DNA of 64,000 bases, taken from positions 7,688,001 to 7,752,000 of the forward strand of contig NZ_CP109467.1 of NCBI RefSeq assembly GCF_036227325.1, given 5' to 3'. The position numbers and the translations under genes are program-made. Under the pieces are notes generated by a model. It was not told where the DNA came from and made no database searches. It saw only the letters and a program-made list of their open reading frames with translations. Numbering within the stretch: position 1 is the first letter of the stretch; the number at the start of each line of letters is the position of its first letter. Shown here one piece after another: positions 50,936-64,000 of the stretch. The stretch comes from Streptomyces sp. NBC_01465 (GTDB lineage Bacteria > Actinomycetota > Actinomycetes > Streptomycetales > Streptomycetaceae).

Positions 50936-51436
50936 ATGGAGAGCCGCGGGAGCAACAGCCCGCCCGACCCGGCACAGGCCACTCAGCCCCTGCCGTACGA
51001 AGGCGTCTGGCGATTCACCGCTCCCGCGGTCGACGTCTCCGTCCCGCAGGCCCGTCACGCCGTACGGGATCTGCTGAACCGTCAGGGAGTGCCGGTCCAC
51101 GACGACACCGTGCAGGGCCTGCTGCTGATCGTCTCCGAGCTGGTGACCAACGCGGTGCGGCACGCGGCACTGCTCTCCCCGGAGGTCGCCGTCGAGGTGG
51201 CCATCGGTGCGGAGTGGATCCGGGTGTCCGTAGAGGACAACCACCCCTACCGCCCGAAGGCCCTGGAGCGGGACTACGCCACGACGGGCGGCCGGGGGCT
51301 CCTGCTCGTACGGGAGATCACCGTCGAGGCCGGCGGGGAGTGCGACGTGGAGCAGACCGCGAGCGGCGGCAAGGTCGTCTGGGCCGCACTGCCGCTCGCG
51401 CCCGGGGGAGTCACCAGCCCCCGGTCTCCCCTGTGA
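50936..51436 (+). CDS. ATP-binding protein, anti-sigma-factor-type HATPase
   Basis: A 166-aa protein with a GHKL/HATPase_c domain (about residues 25-150) of the RsbW/SpoIIAB-like type that is abundant in Streptomyces. The N box is LLLIVSELVTNAVRHA (Glu and Asn for Mg-ATP). The G1-like motif is SVEDNHP and the G2-like motif TGGRGLLLVREI. There is no sensor or dimerisation domain, so it is a serine kinase/anti-sigma candidate rather than a sensor kinase. ATG at 50936 is preceded by GGGAG; a longer version from GTG 50900 is possible. It converges with idi, overlapping by 26 bases. Confidence 0.85.
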   Translation: MESRGSNSPPDPAQATQPLPYEGVWRFTAPAVDVSVPQARHAVRDLLNRQGVPVHDDTVQGLLLIVSELVTNAVRHAALLSPEVAVEVAIGAEWIRVSVEDNHPYRPKALERDYATTGGRGLLLVREITVEAGGECDVEQTASGGKVVWAALPLAPGGVTSPRSPL

Positions 51437-51971
51437 GCTCCTTGACCGCGGGCCGCGCGGCGTCGAGCACGGTCATGAACCAGGAGGAGAACGGCGCCTG
51501 AGCGTGCCGCTCCGCCAGCTCCCCGGCCGTGACGAAAGCGGTGGCGCCGACCTCTGTCGGATCCGGCACCAGCTCCGCCTGGACCAGCCCCACGAAGAGA
51601 TGGTTGAACTCCTGCTCCACCAGGCCCGAGTCCGGGTCGGGGTGGTTGTAGCGCACCGTGCCCGCCTCCGCGAGCAGTGCGGGCGAGACACCCAGCTCCT
51701 CGTACGTACGGCGGGCGGCCGCCGCGAAAGGCGACTCACCCGGATACGGGTGGCCGCAGCAGGTGTTCGACCAGACGCCGGGGGAGTGGTACTTGCCCAG
51801 TGCACGCTGCTGGATCAGCAGCCGTCCCGAATCGTCGAAAAGGAAAACGGAGAACGCGCGGTGCAGCTGACCTGGCGCCTGATGTGCGGAAAGCTTCTCC
51901 GCGGTCCCGATGGTCTGGCCGGTCTCATCGACCAGTTCGAGCATGATTGCTTCTGCTGCGCCGTCCGTCAT
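51411..51971 (-). CDS. idi: Isopentenyl-diphosphate delta-isomerase type 1
   Basis: A 186-aa Nudix-fold enzyme that interconverts isopentenyl and dimethylallyl diphosphate, supplying the starter for isoprenoid synthesis. The catalytic Cys is in WSNTCCGHPYPGE (about residue 73) and the catalytic Glu in EQEFNHLFVG. The metal-binding His residues are in APGQLHRAFSVFLFD and CCGHP. Length is typical for type 1 Idi. ATG at 51971. It stands alone on its strand with a terminator-like dyad upstream belonging to the methyltransferase gene. Streptomyces uses the MEP pathway, where Idi balances the two isomers. Confidence 0.95.
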   Translation of the reverse strand: MTDGAAEAIMLELVDETGQTIGTAEKLSAHQAPGQLHRAFSVFLFDDSGRLLIQQRALGKYHSPGVWSNTCCGHPYPGESPFAAAARRTYEELGVSPALLAEAGTVRYNHPDPDSGLVEQEFNHLFVGLVQAELVPDPTEVGATAFVTAGELAERHAQAPFSSWFMTVLDAARPAVKELTGETGGW

Positions 51972-54159: not shown

Positions 54160-55152
54160 CTACGGGTGGGGGGTATCGCGCGCCTCGGGATGGTGGTGGC
54201 ACCAGCCCTCCCAGGCCGATTCGACCATCTCGCGCATCGAGCGCGTGGCCGTCCAGCCCAGCTCCTTGGCGATCAGCTCGGCGGACGAGACGGCCTTGGC
54301 CGCATCCCCAGGACGGCGCGGCTCGACCACCACCGGGGTCGTGTTGCCGGTCACGTCGGCCACCAGATCCGCCAGCTCCCGCACCGAGACACCCTCGCCC
54401 CGGCCGATGTTGACCGTCAGGTCCCCGGCCTCCGTCTGGCCGGAAAGCTTGCGGGCGACCGCCAGATGGGCGTCGGCGAGGTCCGCGACATGGATGTAGT
54501 CCCGGATGCACGTGCCGTCGGGGGTCGGGTAGTCGTCGCCGAAGACCCGGGGCGCGTCACCCCGGGTGAGCCGGTCGAAGAACATCGGGACGACGTTGAA
54601 CACCCCGGTGTCGGCCAGCTCGGGACGGCCCGCGCCCGCCACGTTGAAGTAGCGCAGACAGGCGGTGGAGATCCCATACGCCTGCCCGGTCGCCCGCACC
54701 AGCCACTCTCCGGCCAGCTTCGTCTCCCCGTACGGATTGATGGGTGCGCAGGGGGTCGACTCGGTGATCAGCTCCACGTCCGGCACCCCGTAGACGGCGG
54801 CCGAGGACGAGAACAGGAACCGCTTCACGCCGGCCGCGGCGACGGCCTCCAGGAGCACCGTCAGACCGAACACGTTCTCGCGGTAGTAGTGCAGCGGCCG
54901 CTGCACGGACTCCCCGACCTGCTTCTTGCCCGCGAGATGGACCACACCGGTGATGCCGTGCCCGGTGATCGTCGTATCGAGCAGTTCGCGGTCGAGGACC
55001 GAGCCCCGGACGAGCTCCGTCCCCTCGGGAAGCCGCTCGGGCACCCCGCTGGAGAGGTCGTCCAGCACGACGACCCGCTCACCGGCCTCCTGCATCGCCC
55101 GCGCCACATGCGCCCCGATGTATCCCGCACCACCTGTGATCAGCCACGTCAT
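54160..55152 (-). CDS. galE: UDP-glucose 4-epimerase
   Basis: A 330-aa short-chain dehydrogenase-fold epimerase that interconverts UDP-glucose and UDP-galactose. NAD-binding GGAGYIGAHVARAM is at residues 7-20, DDLSSG at 36-41, the catalytic Ser in FSSSAAVYG and the YGETK motif (Tyr and Lys) follow. Length matches GalE. ATG at 55152. It is divergent from the CDP-alcohol/glycerol-phosphate cluster across a 198-bp gap. It could supply galactose donors for the glycosyltransferase in that cluster or work with galactose released by the GH42 enzyme; both are inference. Confidence 0.93.
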   Translation of the reverse strand: MTWLITGGAGYIGAHVARAMQEAGERVVVLDDLSSGVPERLPEGTELVRGSVLDRELLDTTITGHGITGVVHLAGKKQVGESVQRPLHYYRENVFGLTVLLEAVAAAGVKRFLFSSSAAVYGVPDVELITESTPCAPINPYGETKLAGEWLVRATGQAYGISTACLRYFNVAGAGRPELADTGVFNVVPMFFDRLTRGDAPRVFGDDYPTPDGTCIRDYIHVADLADAHLAVARKLSGQTEAGDLTVNIGRGEGVSVRELADLVADVTGNTTPVVVEPRRPGDAAKAVSSAELIAKELGWTATRSMREMVESAWEGWCHHHPEARDTPHP

Positions 55153-55350: not shown

Positions 55351-57192
55351 ATGCCAGCTCCAAGGAGTGAGTCCGTCCTGTCGACCGCAATCCTCACCGG
55401 TGCTCCGGTACCCGGGTCGCCGCTCGAAGGCGATCTGCGGTCGCTGGGCTTCGACGTCCGCATCGCCGCCTTCGGCACCGAGGACGCGGCGTCGCTGCTC
55501 GCCTCCGTGCCCGCGGGCGACCGGGTCGCTGTCGTCGACCCTCGCTTCGTAGGACATCTGCACACGCTGCGCCTGGCCCTCACCGACCCCCGCTTTCCCG
55601 CGGCCGCGGTCCCCGGCGCCCTCACGGCCCAGCCCGAGGCCCGGGCCGCACTGGTGCGGGCGCTGACGACGGTGGACGCCCAGCAGCCCGCAACGGCAAG
55701 CAGCCAGTACGCCGCCGTGCTCCCCGACACCCTCGCCCAGGCGCTCGACGCCGAAGGCGTCGCCGTGCAGCGGCCCGAGCTCGGCTCGCTCGTGGCCTCC
55801 GTGCCCGGCGACCCGCAGGCCCGGCACGCGGCACGGGCCGCGGTCGCGGACGTCGACGACGAGGCCGTACGGCTGCGCAACGCCGTGAAGTCCCGCGACG
55901 GGTTCTTCACCACGTACTGCATCAGCCCCTACTCCCGCTACATCGCGCGCTGGTGCGCCCGCCGGGGCCTGACCCCGAACCAGGTCACCACCGCCTCGCT
56001 GATCACCGCGCTGATCGCGGCGGGCTGCGCGGCGACCGGCACCCGCGGCGGCTACGTCGCCGCAGGGCTCCTGCTGCTCTTCTCCTTCGTCCTGGACTGC
56101 ACGGACGGGCAGCTCGCCCGCTACTCGCTGCAGTACTCGACGCTCGGCGCCTGGCTGGACGCCACCTTCGACCGGGCCAAGGAGTACGCCTACTACGCGG
56201 GCCTCGCGCTCGGCGCGGCCCGCTCCGGCGACGACGTGTGGGCCCTCGCGCTCGGCGCGATGGTCCTGCAGACCTGCCGGCACGTCGTGGACTTCTCCTT
56301 CAACGAGGCGAACCACGACGCGACCGCCAACACCAGCCCCACGGCCGCCCTCTCCGACAAGCTCGACAGCGTCGGCTGGACGGTCTGGGTGCGCCGGATG
56401 ATAGTTCTGCCGATCGGCGAGCGGTGGGCCATGATTGCGGTGCTGACCGCGCTCACCACCCCGCGGATCGTCTTCTACGCCCTGCTCGTCGGCTGCGCCC
56501 TGGCCGCCTGCTACACCACCGCGGGCCGCGTACTGCGCTCGCTCACCCGCCGCGCCACCCGTACCGACCGGGCGGCCCAGGCACTGGCCGACCTCGCGGA
56601 CAGCGGCCCGATCGCCCAGCTCGTGGCGGCCCGCGCACCGAAGATCAAGAGCGGCTTCGCCGCACCGGTCGTCGCCGCGGTCGGCGCGGTGGCTCTCATC
56701 AGCGCGGCGCTCACGCAGCCGTTCGGCAGCCGCCAGATGATCATTGCCGCGGTCTTCTACGCGATCCTCTCCGGCGTAGCGATAGCCGCCCCCCTCAAGG
56801 GCGCGCTCGACTGGCTCGTCCCCCCGATATTCCGGGCGGCAGAGTACGTGACCGTCCTGGCCCTGGCCGCCCGCTCCGGCATCGACGGAGCCCTGCCCGC
56901 GGCCTTCGGGCTCGTGGCCGCGGTCGCCTACCATCACTACGACACGGTCTACCGCATCAAGGGCGGCACCGGTGCGCCCCCCGCGTGGCTCGTGCGCACG
57001 GTCGGCGGCCAGGAGGGCCGGGTTCTGCTGGTGGCCGTACTCGCCGCCGTACTGGGATCGGACAACACAGACTTCACGCTCGCGCTCACGGTGTTCGCCG
57101 TGGCCGTGGCTCTTGTGGTGCTCGCGGAGAGCATCCGCTTCTGGGTGTCCTCCGGGGCGCCCGCCGTACATGACGAAGGAGAAGCAGCATGA
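55351..57192 (+). CDS. CDP-alcohol phosphotransferase with N-terminal DUF5941-type domain
   Basis: A 613-aa membrane protein. Residues 1-180 form a soluble domain that looks like a degenerate nucleotidyltransferase (LSTAILTGAPVPGSPLEGDL at the start) but lacks the active-site Gly-rich loop. From about residue 185 comes the CDP-alcohol phosphotransferase domain with the full motif DCTDGQLAR-N8-GAWLDATFD, including all four aspartates. KSRDGFF and TPNQVTTAS just before it resemble the inositol-phosphate-phosphate synthase (DIPPS) group, in which a cytidylyltransferase domain is fused in the same order. Two further clusters of helices reach the C-terminus. ATG at 55351 is the only good in-frame start; AAGGAG at 55362 could alternatively serve a CTG start at 55378. 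Its stop overlaps the next gene (ATGA). Confidence 0.85.
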   Translation: MPAPRSESVLSTAILTGAPVPGSPLEGDLRSLGFDVRIAAFGTEDAASLLASVPAGDRVAVVDPRFVGHLHTLRLALTDPRFPAAAVPGALTAQPEARAALVRALTTVDAQQPATASSQYAAVLPDTLAQALDAEGVAVQRPELGSLVASVPGDPQARHAARAAVADVDDEAVRLRNAVKSRDGFFTTYCISPYSRYIARWCARRGLTPNQVTTASLITALIAAGCAATGTRGGYVAAGLLLLFSFVLDCTDGQLARYSLQYSTLGAWLDATFDRAKEYAYYAGLALGAARSGDDVWALALGAMVLQTCRHVVDFSFNEANHDATANTSPTAALSDKLDSVGWTVWVRRMIVLPIGERWAMIAVLTALTTPRIVFYALLVGCALAACYTTAGRVLRSLTRRATRTDRAAQALADLADSGPIAQLVAARAPKIKSGFAAPVVAAVGAVALISAALTQPFGSRQMIIAAVFYAILSGVAIAAPLKGALDWLVPPIFRAAEYVTVLALAARSGIDGALPAAFGLVAAVAYHHYDTVYRIKGGTGAPPAWLVRTVGGQEGRVLLVAVLAAVLGSDNTDFTLALTVFAVAVALVVLAESIRFWVSSGAPAVHDEGEAA

Positions 57193-57926
57193 TCGGCCTC
57201 GTACTGGCGGCCGGCGCCGGAAGGCGTCTGCGCCCCTACACCGACACGCTCCCCAAGGCACTGGTCCCCGTTGACGGCGAGACCACTGTTCTCGATCTGA
57301 CGCTGGGCAACTTCGCGGAGGTCGGACTCACCGAGGTCGCGATCGTCGTCGGCTACCGCAAGGAAGCCGTCTACGCCCGCAAGGCCGAGCTCGAGGCGAA
57401 GTACGGCGTCAAGCTGACCCTCATCGACAACGACAAGGCCGAGGAGTGGAACAACGCCTACTCCCTGTGGTGCGCCCGTGAGGTCCTGAAGCAGGGCGTC
57501 ATCCTCGCCAACGGCGACACCGTCCACCCGGTCTCCGTCGAGCAGACGCTGCTCGCCGCCCGCGGCCAGGGCCAGAAGATCATCCTCGCCCTCGACACGG
57601 TGAAGAACCTCGCCGACGAGGAGATGAAGGTCATCACCGACGGCGACAAGGGAGTTCGGCGCATCACGAAGCTGATGGACCCGGCCACCGCCACCGGCGA
57701 GTACATCGGTGTCACCCTCATCGAGCCCGAGGCCGCCGAGGAGCTCGCCGACGCCCTGAAGACGACCTTCGAGCGCGACCCCGACCTCTACTACGAGGAC
57801 GGCTACCAGGAGCTGGTCAACCGCGGCTTCCAGATCGACGTGGCCCCGATCGGCGACCTCAAGTGGGTCGAGATCGACAACCACGACGACCTCGCGAAGG
57901 GCCGTGAGATCGCGTGCCTGTACTGA
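57189..57926 (+). CDS. LicC-like nucleotidyltransferase (CTP:alcohol-phosphate type inferred)
   Basis: A 245-aa nucleotidyltransferase. The P-loop-like GLVLAAGAGRRLRPYTDTLPKALVPV starts at residue 3. EEWNNAYSLWCARE (about residue 80) is typical of LicC/inositol-phosphate cytidylyltransferases, whose substrate is an alcohol phosphate rather than a sugar. GVILANGDT carries the metal-binding Asp. Short C-terminal region without a left-handed beta-helix. Translation is coupled to the genes on both sides: ATGA with the upstream gene and a 13-base overlap with the downstream dehydrogenase-like gene. I infer that it activates the polyol phosphate made by the next gene; nucleotide choice (CTP) is inferred from the partner enzymes. 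Confidence 0.85.
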   Translation: MIGLVLAAGAGRRLRPYTDTLPKALVPVDGETTVLDLTLGNFAEVGLTEVAIVVGYRKEAVYARKAELEAKYGVKLTLIDNDKAEEWNNAYSLWCAREVLKQGVILANGDTVHPVSVEQTLLAARGQGQKIILALDTVKNLADEEMKVITDGDKGVRRITKLMDPATATGEYIGVTLIEPEAAEELADALKTTFERDPDLYYEDGYQELVNRGFQIDVAPIGDLKWVEIDNHDDLAKGREIACLY

Positions 57927-58981
57927 CCCGGCTGATGCCGAGCCCGGTTGTCGTCGACATCCGGGCCGGCGCGCTGGACGACCTGGCCACGATCCTGACC
58001 GACCAGCGCATCGCCCCCACCGGCAGGCTCGCCTTCGCGATCAGCAGCGGTGGATCCGGCAAGGCGCTGAAGGAGAGGTTCGCACCGGCCTTCCCCGACG
58101 CGCAGTGGTTCGACGACGCCGACGGCACCATCGACGGCGCCGTCAAGCTCGCCGACTCCATCAAGCGCGCCGGCCGGTACGACGCCGTGGTCTCGCTCGG
58201 CGGCGGCAAGGTCGTCGACTGTGCGAAGTACGCCGCGGCCAGGGTCGGCCTGCCGCTGGTCGCCGTGGCGACGAACCTCGCCCACGACGGTCTGTGCTCG
58301 CCGGTCGCCACGCTCGACAACGACGCAGGCCGCGGTTCGTACGGCGTACCGTCCCCGATCGGCGTCGTCATCGACCTGGACGTCATCCGCGATGCCCCGG
58401 CCCGCTTCGTCCGGGCCGGCGTCGGCGACGTCATCTGCAAGATCTCCGCCGTCGCGGACTGGGAGCTCTCGCACCAGGTCAACGGCGAGCAGATCGACGG
58501 CCTCGCCGCGGCCATGGCCCGCCAGGCCGCCCACGCGGTGCTGCGGCACCCGGGCAGCATCGGCGACGACTCCTTCCTCAGCGTGCTCGCCGAGTCCCTC
58601 GTGATGTGCGGTCTCGCGATGTCCGTGGCCGGCGACTCGAGGCCCGCCTCCGGTGCCTGCCACGAGATCTGCCACGCCTTCGACCTGCTCTTCCCCAAGC
58701 GCAACGCGCAGCACGGAGAGCAGTGCGGGTTCGGCGGAGCGTTCGCCACGTTCCTGCGCGGCGATCTCGACACGGTGAAAGAGATGACCGCGACGCTGCG
58801 CCGCCACGGGCTGCCGGTCCTCGCCGAGGAGATGGGCTTCAGCGACCAGGACCTGGTGGACGCGGTGCTCTTCGCCCCGCAGACCCGTCCCGGCCGCTAC
58901 ACCATCCTTGAGCACCTCAACCTCAACCCCGACCAGATCAAGGACGCTTACGCCGACTATGCAAAAGCCATCGGTAGCTGA
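57914..58981 (+). CDS. Glycerol-1-phosphate dehydrogenase-like protein (EgsA/AraM family)
   Basis: A 355-aa member of the iron-containing alcohol dehydrogenase superfamily, Fe-ADH_2 subgroup. The NAD-binding SLGGGKVVDCAKY (about residues 94-106), TNLAHDGLCSPVA with the conserved His-Asp-Gly, SRPASGACHEICHAF (two metal-ligand candidates) and AQHGEQ resemble archaeal and Bacillus AraM glycerol-1-phosphate dehydrogenases, which reduce DHAP to sn-glycerol 1-phosphate. GTG start at 57914, overlapping the previous gene by 13 bases; the next gene starts inside its last 23 bases. A 2-deoxy-scyllo-inosose-synthase-like or other polyol dehydrogenase activity is the alternative. Confidence 0.85.
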   Translation: MPVLTRLMPSPVVVDIRAGALDDLATILTDQRIAPTGRLAFAISSGGSGKALKERFAPAFPDAQWFDDADGTIDGAVKLADSIKRAGRYDAVVSLGGGKVVDCAKYAAARVGLPLVAVATNLAHDGLCSPVATLDNDAGRGSYGVPSPIGVVIDLDVIRDAPARFVRAGVGDVICKISAVADWELSHQVNGEQIDGLAAAMARQAAHAVLRHPGSIGDDSFLSVLAESLVMCGLAMSVAGDSRPASGACHEICHAFDLLFPKRNAQHGEQCGFGGAFATFLRGDLDTVKEMTATLRRHGLPVLAEEMGFSDQDLVDAVLFAPQTRPGRYTILEHLNLNPDQIKDAYADYAKAIGS

Positions 58982-59738
58982 ACTCCGCCCGGTCGTGCAC
59001 CCTCCGGGCGTCAAGGACCGGCGGAGCGGCGAGCACTGGGGCGGCCGGCTCTACATGCGCGAGATCTCGCTGCGTGTCGACCGGCACCTGGTGACCACGA
59101 AGATCACGCCCAACCAGCTGACCTACGTGATGACCGTTGCCGCCGCCTTCGCCGCCCCGGCCCTCCTGGTGCCCGGGATCTGGGGTGCGGTGCTCGGTGT
59201 GCTGATGGCTCAGCTCTACCTGCTTCTCGACTGCGTCGACGGCGAGGTCGCCCGCTGGAAGAAGCAGTACTCGATGGTCGGCGTCTACGTGGACCGCGTG
59301 GCCGCCTATGTGCTCGACGCCGCGGTGCTCGTCGGCTTCGGTCTGCGCGCCGCCGACATCTGGGGCTCGGGGCGGATCGACTGGCTGTGGGCCTTCCTCG
59401 GCACGCTCGCCGCCCTCGGCGCCATCCTGATCAAGTCGGAGACCGACCTGGTCGGCGTCGCCCGTCACCAGCAGGGCATGCCCCCGGTCAAGGAGACGGC
59501 CTCCGAGCCGCGTACCTCCGGCATGGCGCTGGCCCGCAGGGCCGCAGGGGCGCTGAAGTTCCACCGGCTCGTCATGGGGATCGAAGCGACCCTGCTGATC
59601 CTTCTTCTCGCGATCCTCGACGCGGTCAGGGGCGACCTGTTCTTCTCCCGGCTCGGCGTCGCCGTGCTGGCGGGCATCGCGCTCCTGCAGTCCGTGCTCC
59701 ACCTCGTGTCCATCCTCGCGTCGAGCAGGCTGAAGTGA
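58959..59738 (+). CDS. Second CDP-alcohol phosphotransferase, final motif Asp replaced by Ala
   Basis: A 259-aa integral membrane protein of the CDP-alcohol phosphatidyltransferase family. The core is LLLDCVDGEVAR-N8-GVYVDRVAAY: D1, D2 and D3 are present but the fourth aspartate (the catalytic base in structurally studied members) is Ala. TTKITPNQLTY precedes it and at least five hydrophobic helices follow. Residues 1-45 are hydrophilic (VKDRRSGEHWGGRLYMREISL). ATG at 58959 lies inside the preceding gene (23-base overlap) and has AAGGA upstream. The next gene starts on its stop (GTGA). The altered motif suggests either an inactive partner of the DUF5941 enzyme or another catalytic base, for example the Asp five residues on. 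Confidence 0.85.
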   Translation: MQKPSVAELRPVVHPPGVKDRRSGEHWGGRLYMREISLRVDRHLVTTKITPNQLTYVMTVAAAFAAPALLVPGIWGAVLGVLMAQLYLLLDCVDGEVARWKKQYSMVGVYVDRVAAYVLDAAVLVGFGLRAADIWGSGRIDWLWAFLGTLAALGAILIKSETDLVGVARHQQGMPPVKETASEPRTSGMALARRAAGALKFHRLVMGIEATLLILLLAILDAVRGDLFFSRLGVAVLAGIALLQSVLHLVSILASSRLK

Positions 59739-60619
59739 GTACTCCCATGAAGGTCGGCGCGGTGATCATCACCATGGGCAACCGCCCCGACGAACTGCGC
59801 GCCCTGCTCGACTCGGTCACCAAGCAGGACGGCGACCGCATCGAGGTCGTCGTGGTCGGCAACGGCGCACCCGTGCCGGACGTCCCCGCAGGCGTACGGA
59901 CCGTCGAACTGCCCGAGAACCTGGGCATCCCCGGCGGCCGCAACGTCGGCATCGAGGCGTTCGGCCCCTCGGGCGCCGACGTCGACGTGCTCCTCTTCCT
60001 CGACGACGACGGTCTGCTGCCGAACAACGACACGGCCGAGCTGTGCCGCCAGGCCTTCACCGCCGACCAGAAGCTGGGCATCATCAGCTTCCGGATCGCC
60101 GACCCGGAGACCGGCGTCACCCAGCGCCGCCACGTGCCCAGGCTGCGCGCCGCGGACCCGATGCGCTCCTCGCGGGTGACGACGTTCCTCGGCGGCGCCA
60201 ATGCCGTACGTACGCAGGTCATCGCCGAGGTCGGCGGACTCCCGGACGAGTTCTTCTACGCCCACGAGGAGACCGACCTGGCCTGGCGGGCCCTCGACGC
60301 AGGCTGGATGATCGACTACCGCGCGGACATGGTCCTCCACCACCCGACGACCGCACCCTCGCGGCACGCGGTCTACCACCGGATGGTGGCCCGCAACCGC
60401 GTCTGGCTCGCCCGCCGCAATCTGCCCGCGCTCCTGGTCCCGGTCTACCTCGGGATCTGGATGCTCCTCACGCTGGCCCGTCGCCCGTCCGGTCCTGCCC
60501 TCAAGGCCTGGTTCGGCGGCTTCAAGGAAGGCTGGTCGACGCCCTGCGGACCCCGCCGCCCGATGAAATGGCGTACGGTCTGGCGCCTGACAAGGCTGGG
60601 CCGACCTCCTGTCATCTGA
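59735..60619 (+). CDS. Glycosyltransferase family 2
   Basis: A 294-aa GT-A-fold glycosyltransferase. VGAVIITMGNRPDELRALLDSV is the start of the nucleotide-binding domain. The metal-binding loop is LFLDDDGLL, FLGGANAVR and EFFYAHEETDLAWRAL are acceptor-side and ED-type motifs of the rhamnosyl/galactofuranosyl-type GT2 proteins. There is one hydrophobic segment (about residues 240-256, ALLVPVYLGIWMLLTLA), so it associates with the membrane. The start GTG at 59735 overlaps the previous stop; ATG at 59747 is the alternative. Donor and acceptor are unknown; from context the acceptor is probably the polyol-phosphate lipid made by the upstream genes. Confidence 0.88.
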   Translation: MSTPMKVGAVIITMGNRPDELRALLDSVTKQDGDRIEVVVVGNGAPVPDVPAGVRTVELPENLGIPGGRNVGIEAFGPSGADVDVLLFLDDDGLLPNNDTAELCRQAFTADQKLGIISFRIADPETGVTQRRHVPRLRAADPMRSSRVTTFLGGANAVRTQVIAEVGGLPDEFFYAHEETDLAWRALDAGWMIDYRADMVLHHPTTAPSRHAVYHRMVARNRVWLARRNLPALLVPVYLGIWMLLTLARRPSGPALKAWFGGFKEGWSTPCGPRRPMKWRTVWRLTRLGRPPVI

Positions 60620-60700
60620 CAGGCTCTGGTCTGAGAGCATCAGGGGTACTTCACCTGCACCCGGTCAGGCTGCACATCTTGAACACGAAAGTTTCAACCT

Positions 60701-61630
60701 GTGAGTGACACAACCCATGACGGAGCGGTCTCGCTGAGCGCCCCGCCATCTCCCGACGACGGTCTGCCCCCGGCGGCGCTCGCCGCCAAGTACGGCCTGT
60801 CGGTGAGCGGTGCCCGGCCCGGCCTCATCGAGTACGTACGGCAGATGTGGGGCCGGCGCCACTTCATCATGGCCTTCTCCCAGGCCAAGCTGATGTCGCA
60901 GTACAGCCAGGCCAAGCTGGGCCAGGTCTGGCAGGTGGCGACCCCTCTGCTCAACGCCGCGGTCTACTACTTCATCTTCGGCGTGATCATGAACTCGGGA
61001 CGGGGGATGTCCAAGGAAGTCTTCATCCCCTTCCTGGTCACGGGTGTCTTCGTCTTCACCTTCACGCAGAGTTCGGTGATGGCAGGCGTACGCGCGATCT
61101 CCGGCAACCTGGGCCTGGTGCGGGCACTGCACTTCCCGCGCGCCTCACTGCCGATCTCCTTCGCGCTCCAGCAGCTCCAGCAACTGCTGTTCTCGATGAT
61201 CGTGCTGGTGATCGTCGCGGTGGTCTTCGGCAGCTACCCCTCGCTCTCCTGGCTGCTGGTGGTGCCCGCGCTGACCATGCAGTTCGTGTTCAACACCGGC
61301 ATGGCGCTGATCATGGCCCGCCTCGGCAGCAAGACCCCCGACCTCGCCCAGCTGATGCCCTTCATCATGCGGACCTGGATGTACGCGTCGGGCGTCATGT
61401 TCTCGATCACGGTCATGCTCGCGGACAAGCCGTCCTGGATCGCCGACACGCTGCAGTACAACCCGGCGGCGATCTACATGGACCTGATCCGCTTCGCGCT
61501 GATCGACGGTTACGGCGCGTCGAACCTCCCCGACCACGTATGGGTCGCCGCCCTGATCTGGGCGATCCTCGTCGGCTGTGCGGGCTTTGTGTACTTCTGG
61601 AAGGCAGAGGAACGGTACGGCCGTGGCTGA
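60701..61630 (+). CDS. ABC-2 type permease, teichoic acid/polysaccharide exporter subunit
   Basis: A 309-aa permease of the TagG/Wzm/RfbA type. A cytosolic N-terminus of about 65 residues (with LIEYVRQMWGRRHFIMAFSQAKL, the amphipathic connecting helix, about residues 46-68) is followed by six membrane helices, beginning ATPLLNAAVYYFIFGVIM. GTG start at 60701; the 81-base gap to the glycosyltransferase gene has no clear terminator. Partner ATPase follows with an 8-base overlap. Exports lipid-linked glycans in this family. With the upstream genes it suggests flipping of a glycosylated polyol-phosphate lipid. Confidence 0.9.
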   Translation: MSDTTHDGAVSLSAPPSPDDGLPPAALAAKYGLSVSGARPGLIEYVRQMWGRRHFIMAFSQAKLMSQYSQAKLGQVWQVATPLLNAAVYYFIFGVIMNSGRGMSKEVFIPFLVTGVFVFTFTQSSVMAGVRAISGNLGLVRALHFPRASLPISFALQQLQQLLFSMIVLVIVAVVFGSYPSLSWLLVVPALTMQFVFNTGMALIMARLGSKTPDLAQLMPFIMRTWMYASGVMFSITVMLADKPSWIADTLQYNPAAIYMDLIRFALIDGYGASNLPDHVWVAALIWAILVGCAGFVYFWKAEERYGRG

Positions 61631-62411
61631 GGACAAGATCGAGGGGCGGGTCCCCACCGTCATCGCCGACGATGTGCACATCGTCTACCGGGTGAACGGC
61701 GCAGGCGGCGGCAAGGGCAGCGCCACCGCCGCGCTCAGCCGCATGGTCCGCAGGAACAAGACCGGCGAGTCGCGCGGTGTCCGCAAGGTCCACGCCGTAC
61801 GCGGCGTCTCCTTCACGGCGTACCGCGGCGAGGCCATCGGCCTCATCGGCACCAACGGCTCCGGCAAGTCCACCCTGTTGCGCGCCATCGCCGGACTGCT
61901 GCCGACGGAGAGCGGCAAGGTCTACACCGACGGCCAGCCCTCTCTGCTCGGCGTGAACGCGGCGCTGATGAACGACCTCACGGGCGAACGCAACGTCATC
62001 CTCGGCGGCCTCGCCATGGGCATGTCCCGCGAGGAGATCCGCGAGCGCTACCAGGGCATCGTCGACTTCTCCGGCATCAACGAGAAGGGCGACTTCATCA
62101 CCCTGCCGATGCGCACCTACTCGTCCGGCATGGCGGCCAGGCTCCGCTTCTCCATCGCGGCCGCCAAGAACCACGACGTGCTGATGATCGACGAGGCGCT
62201 CGCCACCGGTGACCGCAAGTTCCAGATCCGCTCCGAGCAGCGCATCCGCGAACTGCGCAAGGAGGCGGGCACCGTCTTCCTCGTCAGCCACAGCAACAAG
62301 TCGATCAGGGACACCTGCGACCGCGTCCTGTGGCTGGAGAAGGGCGAGCTCCTGATGGACGGCCCGACCGACGAGGTCATCAAGGCGTACGAGAAGGAGA
62401 CCGGACGCTAG
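61623..62411 (+). CDS. ABC transporter ATPase, TagH/Wzt type
   Basis: A 262-aa ATPase. The N-terminal Gly/Ser-rich insertion (YRVNGAGGGKGSATAALSR, about residues 20-38) and the Walker A GTNGSGKST (about residue 80) are characteristic of teichoic acid/O-antigen exporters. The signature motif is YSSGM rather than LSGGQ, as in TagH and Wzt, and Walker B is LMIDEALATGD. There is no C-terminal glycan-binding domain (about 140 aa absent), so chain-length or modification control by that domain is not expected. GTG start at 61623 overlaps the permease by 8 bases. Last gene of the cluster; a strong terminator follows. Confidence 0.92.
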   Translation: MAEDKIEGRVPTVIADDVHIVYRVNGAGGGKGSATAALSRMVRRNKTGESRGVRKVHAVRGVSFTAYRGEAIGLIGTNGSGKSTLLRAIAGLLPTESGKVYTDGQPSLLGVNAALMNDLTGERNVILGGLAMGMSREEIRERYQGIVDFSGINEKGDFITLPMRTYSSGMAARLRFSIAAAKNHDVLMIDEALATGDRKFQIRSEQRIRELRKEAGTVFLVSHSNKSIRDTCDRVLWLEKGELLMDGPTDEVIKAYEKETGR

Positions 62412-62488: not shown

Positions 62489-64000
62489 TCACACCCCGGC
62501 GGGCTGCTTCACCTCCGGTGCCTCGGCCAGCCCCACCCGCCCGTGCAGCCTGCGCAGCAACGGCGGTGCGTACCAGGCACGGTCGCCCAGGACCCGCATG
62601 GCGGCCGGCACCAGGATCCCGCGCACGGCCACCGCGTCGATGACGATGGCGAGCCCGCTGCCGATGCCGAACATCTGCAGGAAGCTGATCGAGCTCGTGC
62701 CGAAGGCGAAGAAGCTCACCGCGAGCAGCCCGGCCGCCATCGAGACGATCCGCCCGGTCCGCGCGAGCCCCTGCGTCACGACGGTCGAGCGGTCGGCCCC
62801 CGCGTCGTGCAGCTCCTTCATCCGGCTGGTCACGAAGACCTCGTAGTCCATCGAGAGTCCGAAGGTGACACAGAACAGCAGCACGGTCATCGAGGTGTCC
62901 AACGGCTGCGGTGTGAAGCCGAGGAGAGAGGCGAGATGCCCGTCCTGGAAGATCCACACCATCACGCCCACGGAGGCCGACAGGCTCACCGCGTTGAGCA
63001 GCAGGGCACGCAGCGGCTGCACGACGCTGCCGGTGAAGAGGAAGAGCAGTACGAAGGTCGTCACCGCGATCAGCCCTGCGGCCAGGGGAAGCCTGATCCC
63101 GATCGAGTGCTTGGAGTCGACCAGCCGCGCGTCGTCCCCGCCGACGAGTGTGGTCGTGCCCGACGGACCCGGGAGCGCCCGGATCTCGCGTACGAGGTCC
63201 TGCGCATCCCCCGACTTGGGCGTGAACGCGGAGACGACCTCGATCCGCTGGGCGTCCGAGCGCCCCAGCGCGGCGCTCGCGGGACCGGCGGGCTGGGCCT
63301 GCCCCTTCGTGTACGTACCCGAACTCGCGTCGACCCGGACGACTCCGTCGAGCCGCGAAAGACGCTGCGCGTACGTACTCAGCGCCCCGGGCTGCACGCC
63401 CCCTTCGGTCACCACCTGCACGGAACCGGTGTCGTTGGCGCGGAAGTCCTCCCGCAGTGCGGTGGCCACCTGGCGGGCGGCCGCCGACTCCGGCAGCACG
63501 CGCTCGTCCGGAGTGCCGAAGGTGACGCCGAGCAGTGGGCTCGCGGCCAGCAGCAGGACGGCGAGGACGGGCAGCGCGGTCAGCGCGGGCCGGCGCATGA
63601 CCGTACCGGCGAGCCTGCCCCAGAACGGTGCGTCGGCGCGCCGTACGGCCGAGGCCCACGGCAGGCGCCCCTTGTTGACGCGGTGCCCGAGCACCGCGAG
63701 GAGCGGCGGCACGACGAAGAGCGCACCGAGTACGGCGATGGCCACCACCCCGATGCCCGCGTAGGCGAACGAGCGCAGGAAGAACTGCGGGAAGACCAGC
63801 AGTGCGGCAAGCGCCGCCGCCACGGTCGCGGCGGAGAAGACGATCGTGCGCCCGGCCGTTGTCACGGTCGTCCGCAGCGCGTCGGGTACCGCTGCCCCGG
63901 CGGCCAGTTGCTCGCGGAAACGGCTGACGAGCAGCAGCGCGTAGTCGATGCCGAGCCCGAGTCCGAGGGCGGTGGTCAGATTGATGGAGAAGACGGAGAC
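62489..64000 (-). CDS. MmpL/RND family transporter, C-terminal part (start outside window)
   Basis: The last 503 or so codons of an MMPL-family membrane transporter; the frame is open to the window edge. The segment visible first (INLTTALGLGLGIDYALLLVSRF) is the conserved helix carrying the proton-relay Asp-Tyr pair, so about 200 residues of the N-terminal half are missing. A second such helix reads FGLSMDYEVFVTSRMKEL. Between them lies an extracytoplasmic porter domain with DLVREIRALPGP. MmpL proteins export lipids or hydrophobic small molecules. It converges on the exporter cluster across the terminator, so it is in a separate transcription unit. Confidence 0.9.
   Translation of the reverse strand, partial: VSVFSINLTTALGLGLGIDYALLLVSRFREQLAAGAAVPDALRTTVTTAGRTIVFSAATVAAALAALLVFPQFFLRSFAYAGIGVVAIAVLGALFVVPPLLAVLGHRVNKGRLPWASAVRRADAPFWGRLAGTVMRRPALTALPVLAVLLLAASPLLGVTFGTPDERVLPESAAARQVATALREDFRANDTGSVQVVTEGGVQPGALSTYAQRLSRLDGVVRVDASSGTYTKGQAQPAGPASAALGRSDAQRIEVVSAFTPKSGDAQDLVREIRALPGPSGTTTLVGGDDARLVDSKHSIGIRLPLAAGLIAVTTFVLLFLFTGSVVQPLRALLLNAVSLSASVGVMVWIFQDGHLASLLGFTPQPLDTSMTVLLFCVTFGLSMDYEVFVTSRMKELHDAGADRSTVVTQGLARTGRIVSMAAGLLAVSFFAFGTSSISFLQMFGIGSGLAIVIDAVAVRGILVPAAMRVLGDRAWYAPPLLRRLHGRVGLAEAPEVKQPAGV

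What the first reader, a model, noticed from the sequence alone, without database searches (positions are those of the whole stretch)
55351..62411. Possible undescribed polyol-phosphate glycolipid/polymer biosynthesis and export cluster
Seven closely spaced genes combine a DIPPS-like CDP-alcohol phosphotransferase, a LicC-like cytidylyltransferase, a glycerol-1-phosphate dehydrogenase-like enzyme, a second CDP-alcohol phosphotransferase, a GT2 and a TagGH-type exporter. Four junctions overlap by 4-23 bases. The logic is: make an alcohol phosphate (perhaps sn-glycerol 1-phosphate, the archaeal stereoisomer), activate it to a CDP-alcohol, transfer it to a membrane acceptor, glycosylate, export. 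It contains none of the classical TagF/TagB polymerases. I know no characterised product of such a cluster.
Basis: inference. Interest (0 to 1): 0.8.

Follow-up and report, generated by a model that had tools for sequence, protein, structure and literature searches.

The report
Streptomyces glycerol-phosphate surface polymer cluster
Seven neighbouring genes found in Streptomyces probably build a glycerol-phosphate lipid or polymer for the cell surface from the mirror-image glycerol phosphate usually linked with archaea, which could explain how these bacteria make such material without the known enzymes.

The parts
55351..57192 (+). Gene A: CDP-alcohol phosphotransferase with a degenerate cytidylyltransferase-fold N-domain (model residues 8-167), canonical CAP core (about 181-399) and DUF5941 membrane module (406-613)
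57189..57926 (+). Gene B: LicC/IPCT-type (COG1213) cytidylyltransferase, proposed CTP:glycerol-1-phosphate cytidylyltransferase
   Evidence: PF00483/PF12804; best PDB match LicC 1jyk; R13 and K23 invariant in 103 rows, N108 in 104, D230 in 105; D110 read in the window only; adjacent to C in 58 of 80 named loci
57914..58981 (+). Gene C: glycerol-1-phosphate dehydrogenase-like enzyme (EgsA/AraM family)
   Evidence: PF13685; PRK00843 235 bits, below the cut-off of 413; SRPASG motif and D172/H250/H267 (metal ligands by homology, recalled) shared with archaeal rows; SRPASG absent from E. coli GldA
58959..59738 (+). Gene D: second CDP-alcohol phosphotransferase-fold protein, divergent clade lacking the fourth signature Asp, with an EHWxGRLYMR N-terminal motif
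59735..60619 (+). Gene E: GT2 glycosyltransferase
   Evidence: PF00535 40.5 bits; one weak PDB match, 9jma, named as a glucosyltransferase acting on an undecaprenyl-linked glycan
60701..61630 (+). Gene F: TagG/Wzm-type ABC exporter permease
   Evidence: PF01061; best NCBIfam match a galactan export permease, below cut-off; PDB matches include TarG 6jbh; paralogue 62% identical beside PF04464 genes elsewhere in the genome
61578..62411 (+). Gene G: TagH/Wzt-type ABC exporter ATPase (start uncertain, 61578 or 61623)
   Evidence: PF00005; best NCBIfam match TagH PRK13546 173.6 bits, below cut-off 320; paralogue 68% identical over residues 6-120 (cut by the locus edge) beside PF04464 genes
54160..55152 (-). 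Divergent galE; a frequent neighbour in Streptomyces but not clearly part of the unit
   Evidence: TIGR01179 325.5 bits, above cut-off; in 5 of 5 long Streptomyces loci and in 26 of the 34 Streptomyces loci that reach that far (counted by eye; missing e.g. in L074, L088, L089)

Best explanation
The cluster makes and exports a glycerol-phosphate-containing surface glycolipid or teichoic-acid-like polymer by a CDP-glycerol route that starts from sn-glycerol 1-phosphate. (1) C reduces DHAP to G1P [inferred from family and motifs]. (2) B activates G1P with CTP to CDP-glycerol [inferred; supported by near-obligate pairing with C in actinobacteria and by PF04464 neighbours in some relatives]. (3) A transfers glycerophosphate from CDP-glycerol to a membrane acceptor, most likely a diacylglycerol or glycolipid hydroxyl, as cholinephosphotransferase does in the Kennedy pathway [inferred from predicted fold]. 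(4) D, a second CDP-alcohol-phosphotransferase-fold protein lacking the usual base, extends or modifies the product, or partners A [open]. (5) E glycosylates and F/G export [family-level inference]. Transfer of G1P from CDP-glycerol to DAG would give the natural configuration of phosphatidylglycerol and of Firmicutes lipoteichoic acid (established stereochemistry, recalled), which would explain the use of the 'archaeal' isomer. The specific proposal is that this is part of the LtaS-independent polyglycerolphosphate/lipoteichoic-acid pathway of Streptomyces.
Against: No activity is shown. C scores below the curated G1PDH cut-off (235 against 413 bits), and the single best PDB match of its profile, 3ce9 (266 bits), is named 'glycerol dehydrogenase' by its depositors. 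A lacks the Glu/His pair proposed as catalytic in CHPT1. In CEPT1 the acyl chains sit in TM2-6, so the extra helices are no proof of a lipid acceptor. PF04464 was found near these genes in only 6 loci (0 of 80, not beside B-C in G341 and G351, close relatives of G121), never in the Streptomyces locus itself. 69 of 101 Streptomyces have sub-threshold TagD-family matches (best 70 bits), so another CDP-glycerol source is possible in many. PMC3196553 itself favours LTA made by enzymes shared with TagB/TagF-type teichoic acid synthesis, and did not detect LTA in S. verticillus, whereas C was in all 199 Streptomyces genomes searched. No initiating (TagO-like) gene is among the seven.
Confidence: 0.58

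Rival explanations
1. The cluster makes a wall teichoic acid on an undecaprenyl-diphosphate carrier, bound to peptidoglycan. The CDP-alcohol phosphotransferases act as primase or polymerase in place of TagB/TagF, or the B-C pair feeds CDP-glycerol to the TagF proteins at 5.27-5.29 Mb.
For: F/G resemble TagGH and galactan exporters, which carry undecaprenyl-linked chains (recalled). E's one PDB match acts on an undecaprenyl-linked glycan. In G204 A sits in a TagG-TagH-A-TagF order on one strand, G777 is alike. The TagF locus of this genome has TagG/TagH 62/68% identical to F/G.
Against: No TagO-like or linkage-unit gene among the seven. Published Streptomyces wall polymers vary by species (recalled) while C was in every Streptomyces genome searched. 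A's ten-helix fold is so far known from enzymes with lipid acceptors.
Confidence: 0.25
2. The dehydrogenase and cytidylyltransferase act on another polyol (for example an inositol-, erythritol- or glycerate-related phosphate), giving a different CDP-alcohol and a different phosphoglycolipid.
For: COG1213 enzymes vary in substrate: LicC phosphocholine, IPCT inositol-1-P, CpgD phosphoglycerate, the last with no product from glycerol-1-phosphate (PMC12275187 passages). A scores best against inositol-phosphate-linked CAP models, below their cut-offs. C is below the curated G1PDH cut-off.
Against: C has the SRPxSG motif of the G1PDH rows. PF04464 and GDPD neighbours in some relatives point to glycerol phosphate.
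Confidence: 0.13
3. The cluster makes a soluble compatible solute such as glycerophosphoinositol or diglycerol phosphate, as DIPPS-type enzymes do in thermophiles.
For: A and D resemble AF2299 and IPCT-DIPPS.
Against: A GT2 and a TagGH-type exporter accompany the set in other classes and families; Streptomyces are mostly mesophiles (recalled).
Confidence: 0.04

Closest known systems
Teichoic-acid clusters TagB/TagF/TagD/TagGH (Firmicutes, and some actinobacteria)
   Same: TagGH-type exporter; inferred CDP-glycerol; in six relatives PF04464 lies near the same genes
   Different: No PF04464 or TagD here; the glycerol phosphate supply is a G1PDH-like enzyme plus a LicC-type cytidylyltransferase; transferases are CDP-alcohol phosphotransferases
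Bacillus AraM-PcrB pathway (heptaprenylglyceryl phosphate) and archaeal EgsA
   Same: Gene C is of the same dehydrogenase family
   Different: Here the gene is coupled to a cytidylyltransferase, and PcrB/GGGPS was found in 0 of 61 Streptomyces
Kennedy pathway enzymes CHPT1/CEPT1, and the Treponema LicC-CPT route (recalled)
   Different: A has an extra degenerate cytidylyltransferase domain and lacks the GExxDHxxD catalytic pair; glycerol in place of choline or ethanolamine is inferred
Archaeoglobus AF2299 and IPCT-DIPPS
   Same: Best PDB matches of A and D by sequence and by Foldseek, and of D by VIA; AF2299 binds CDP-glycerol
   Different: A adds the DUF5941 module; D has no N-domain and no fourth Asp; genomic setting is envelope export
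Lipoteichoic acid synthesis by LtaS
   Same: Polyglycerolphosphate LTA is known in Streptomyces (PMC3196553)
   Different: The five PF00884 proteins scanned here match sulfatase models best; the proposed precursor is cytosolic CDP-glycerol

Membership tests
Glycerol-1-phosphate dehydrogenase (EgsA/AraM) | SRP[AC]SG motif and the Asp/His/His positions (roles recalled) | tested here: met
   D172, H250, H267 and SRPASG in the window protein; SRP[AC]SG in the other five bacterial and six archaeal rows, ESGGLA in E. coli GldA
Glycerol-1-phosphate dehydrogenase (EgsA/AraM) | Score over the curated NCBIfam equivalog cut-off (PRK00843) | tested here: not met
   235 bits against a cut-off of 413
Glycerol-1-phosphate dehydrogenase (EgsA/AraM) | DHAP to sn-glycerol 1-phosphate activity | not testable with these tools
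   needs purified enzyme
LicC/IPCT-type (COG1213) cytidylyltransferase | GxGxR...PK loop and catalytic Asp residues | tested here: met
   R13, K23 (103 rows), D230 (105 rows) invariant; D110 present in the window, not counted; best PDB match LicC; R, K and D named as critical in PMC12275187
CDP-alcohol phosphotransferase (PF01066) | Complete signature D-xx-DG-xx-AR-x8-G-xxx-D-xxx-D, gene A | tested here: met
   complete in the window and in 50 of 62 rows; 12 rows had no motif in the aligned stretch, the six of them shown being alignments to the DUF5941 part
CDP-alcohol phosphotransferase (PF01066) | Complete signature including the fourth Asp (base), gene D | tested here: not met
   fourth position Ala in 50 and His in 17 of 67 rows, never Asp; some rows share a genome; D-to-N there nearly abolishes PIP synthase (PMC4634129)
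Class II CDP-alcohol phosphotransferase (CHPT1/CEPT1) | Ten-helix fold | tested here: met
Class II CDP-alcohol phosphotransferase (CHPT1/CEPT1) | Catalytic Glu/His in GExxDHxxD | tested here: not met
   gene A reads GAWLDATFD against the motif in PMC10182977
Teichoic-acid polymerase cluster (TagB/TagF) | PF04464 protein in the cluster | tested here: not met
   none among the seven genes; near homologues in six other genomes
TagGH exporter | ABC-2 permease plus TagH ATPase over the curated cut-off | tested here: not met
   PF01061 and PF00005 are met, but G scores 173.6 bits against the TagH cut-off of 320
LtaS-type lipoteichoic acid synthase | LtaS orthologue in the genome | tested here: inconclusive
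   five of six PF00884 proteins over the cut-off were scanned and match sulfatase models best, one of them over its cut-off; L173 was not scanned

The most novel reading that the evidence does not exclude
This is the missing LtaS-independent lipoteichoic-acid pathway of Actinomycetota. G1P-derived CDP-glycerol is transferred to a lipid anchor by a bacterial ten-helix, cholinephosphotransferase-like enzyme (CAP plus DUF5941) and extended in the cytosol with the help of a base-less or His-based CDP-alcohol phosphotransferase, then exported by TagGH. It would give a polymer with the same stereochemistry as Firmicutes LTA by a wholly different route.
Probability: 0.3. Interest if true: 0.9.

Novelty: new variant of a known kind. 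Interest (0 to 1): 0.68.

Why it matters
Polyglycerolphosphate LTA was described in Streptomyces in 2011 with no clear LtaS orthologue and only a hypothetical route (PMC3196553). This locus, whose dehydrogenase was found in all 199 Streptomyces genomes searched, gives a concrete, testable candidate. It also offers a role for bacterial G1P dehydrogenases other than ether lipids, so that the 'archaeal' glycerol phosphate would serve ordinary bacterial surface polymers. It proposes a function for DUF5941, and describes a clade of CDP-alcohol phosphotransferases that has lost the residue thought to be the catalytic base.

Tried and rejected
Archaeal-type ether lipids: rejected as the main use of G1P because PF01884 (PcrB/GGGPS) gave 0 of 61 Streptomyces genomes while B. 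subtilis and four archaeal controls rang.

DUF5941 as a second, sequence-detectable CDP-AP copy: profile comparison with the CAP half gave probability 0.5, so no sequence support; the fold match came only from the whole model. The N-domain of A against gene B (a single sequence) by profile also gave nothing (probability 1.7).

Which CAP is ancestral: the tree separates D (99/98) and A (84/91) but does not place the Micromonosporaceae-type protein and warns of long branches.

galE as part of the set: not kept, because 8 of 34 Streptomyces loci that reach that far show no galE match.

TagD absence as proof of the route: weakened, as 69 of 101 Streptomyces have sub-threshold matches.

Testing the LTA idea against named LTA producers (Thermobifida, Agromyces) failed: the last protein search listed mainly Actinomadura, Actinoallomurus and Spirillospora relatives and unnamed metagenome proteins among the top 120.

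In the Foldseek list for A all 13 matches at E <= 0.001 are CDP-alcohol phosphotransferases; the 50 VIA rows are these and nucleotidyltransferase folds.

Paper searches used to look for an earlier description. No paper in the held library was found that characterises this cluster; DUF5941 appears in none. Most subscription journals are not held.
Full report
Observation. Start and stop codons were checked: A 55351-57192, B 57189-57926, C 57914-58981, D 58959-59738, E 59735-60619, F 60701-61630, G 61578 or 61623 to 62411; overlaps of 4, 13, 23 and 4 nt at the first four junctions. The host is a Streptomyces by its nearest named relatives; its genome is one contig of 9.14 Mb.

A real, old unit. 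C was found (E <= 1e-60) in 199 of 199 Streptomyces genomes, against 32 of 296 genomes spread over the phylum at E <= 1e-40. Of 20 stretches fetched from that search, the five Streptomyces ones carry galE and A-G in one order; distant L042 has all seven (F and G about 5 kb off), L043 has A-E and L044 B-G. L169, from another class, has A, B, C, D, E, F, G in the same order at 27-59% identity. L202, L205 and L208 have F-G-A-B-C-D-E on one strand, A being seen there weakly (L202) or by its DUF5941 half only. In L073 (Micromonospora) and L041 (G204) a minimal B-C-CAP trio is found.

B and C belong together. In the 80 best named loci, B lies directly beside C in 58 (tblastn E 1e-5). The 22 others are 17 archaea, 3 WOR-3, L075 and L091. 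By title this is 36 of 36 Streptomyces, 21 of 23 other Actinomycetota, 1 of 1 Bacilli, and 0 of 20 archaea/WOR-3. The 36 Streptomyces are not independent. Archaea need G1P for lipids and, in these loci, do not pair the gene with this cytidylyltransferase.

Enzyme C. A profile of 16 actinobacterial homologues scores 231-238 bits with three PDB sequences named G1PDH (4rgq, 4rfl, 5fb3), 151 with a fourth (9h4x), and 85-100 with the sequences of the E. coli type of glycerol dehydrogenase. Its best match of all, 3ce9 (266 bits), is named glycerol dehydrogenase by its depositors, which counts against a clean assignment by name. SRP[AC]SG is shared by all six bacterial and six archaeal rows and is replaced in E. 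coli GldA; a C-terminal RxTIL-like motif is also shared, with variations. The NCBIfam equivalog cut-off is not reached (235 of 413 bits). PcrB/GGGPS was found in 0 of 61 Streptomyces.

Why CDP-glycerol. PF04464 (TagF-type glycerophosphotransferase) lies next to B-C in G121 (L052) and G391 (L167), in different arrangements, each with a GDPD phosphodiesterase within about 4 kb. In G204 (L143) the order on one strand is TagG-TagH-A-TagF, while its B-C-CAP trio is at another place in the same genome; G777 (L192) is alike by BLAST. G676 (L206) has A, D, TagG and PF04464, and G758 (L207) A, D, E, TagG, TagH and PF04464, the latter about 3.5 and 7 kb from A. Against this, TagF queries found nothing in the 80 loci, 1 of 7 (not in G341 and G351, close to G121) and 3 of 17; in the whole-genome search, 6 of 25 genomes had PF04464 at all. 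In G108 it is on the same contig but about 20 kb away. In the window's genome PF04464 genes at 5.27-5.29 Mb are next to a TagG 62% and a TagH 68% identical to F and G. TagD (TIGR01518) is over cut-off in 0 of 101 Streptomyces, and absent at E 0.001 from this genome, though 69 of the 101 have weaker matches.

Mechanism and product. C: DHAP to G1P. B: G1P plus CTP to CDP-glycerol. A: glycerophosphate to a membrane acceptor. D and E: extension or decoration. F/G: export. All steps are inference from families, motifs, neighbours and predicted folds. If the acceptor is DAG or a glycolipid, G1P gives the head-group configuration of ordinary phosphatidylglycerol and LTA (recalled). S. hygroscopicus, and by preliminary analysis S. 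coelicolor, contain polyglycerolphosphate LTA without a clear LtaS orthologue; the authors suggest an alternative route shared with TagB/TagF-type teichoic acid synthesis, not yet proved (PMC3196553 passages). Five of the six PF00884 proteins over the cut-off in this genome were scanned and match sulfatase models best. Against the LTA reading, LTA was not detected in S. verticillus, while C was in every Streptomyces genome searched.

Prior notice. PMC13118837 (2026; one passage read) lists a syntenic Streptomyces region with crtB, tagH, tagG, araM, a CDP-alcohol transferase, GT2 and a nucleotidyltransferase under teichoic acid biosynthesis; no function is tested in that passage. I found no characterisation in the held library (searches listed under Tried and rejected).

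Verdict. It is a new variant of known teichoic-acid and Kennedy-type chemistry, with a fair chance of being an important missing pathway.

Noticed in passing
L154:9724-11223 (G000 2.55 Mb): A 500-aa frame holding an IspD match (PF01128 156 bits) beside a nucleotidyltransferase-like gene, possibly a TarI-like fusion and a CDP-ribitol source; not scanned further.
   Followed up: no
L138, L139 (G000 5.262-5.299 Mb): Four strong PF04464 matches in frames of 708-1160 codons whose starts look GT2-like by eye, with a TagG/TagH pair 62/68% identical to the window's F/G.
   Followed up: partly
L047, L049 (family f9): Cytidylyltransferase-G1PDH pair followed by a type I phosphodiesterase-like protein (PF01663 scanned in L049), and a CAP gene a few kb away next to a GT2-looking frame.
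   Followed up: partly
L120:5172-6721, L135:643-2087: Glycerophosphodiester phosphodiesterase and an IspD homologue divergent from the cluster (Pfam scanned in L120; L135 by family clustering).
   Followed up: partly
L127:9911-11649: An uncultured Bacilli genome also pairs G1PDH with a LicC-like cytidylyltransferase, followed by large proteins of unknown kind.
   Followed up: no
window 51411-51971 (-): An ORF that I read as isopentenyl-diphosphate isomerase (identification recalled, no family search) is syntenic with the cluster in other Streptomyces.
   Followed up: no
window 62489-63865 (-): MMPL-family protein convergent with gene G, MmpL3-like by NCBIfam but far below its cut-off; it may run beyond the window.
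   Followed up: no
G000:C1:764824-766060: A second cytidylyltransferase-like domain in a long frame beside a CDP-alcohol transferase, without a dehydrogenase hit.
   Followed up: no
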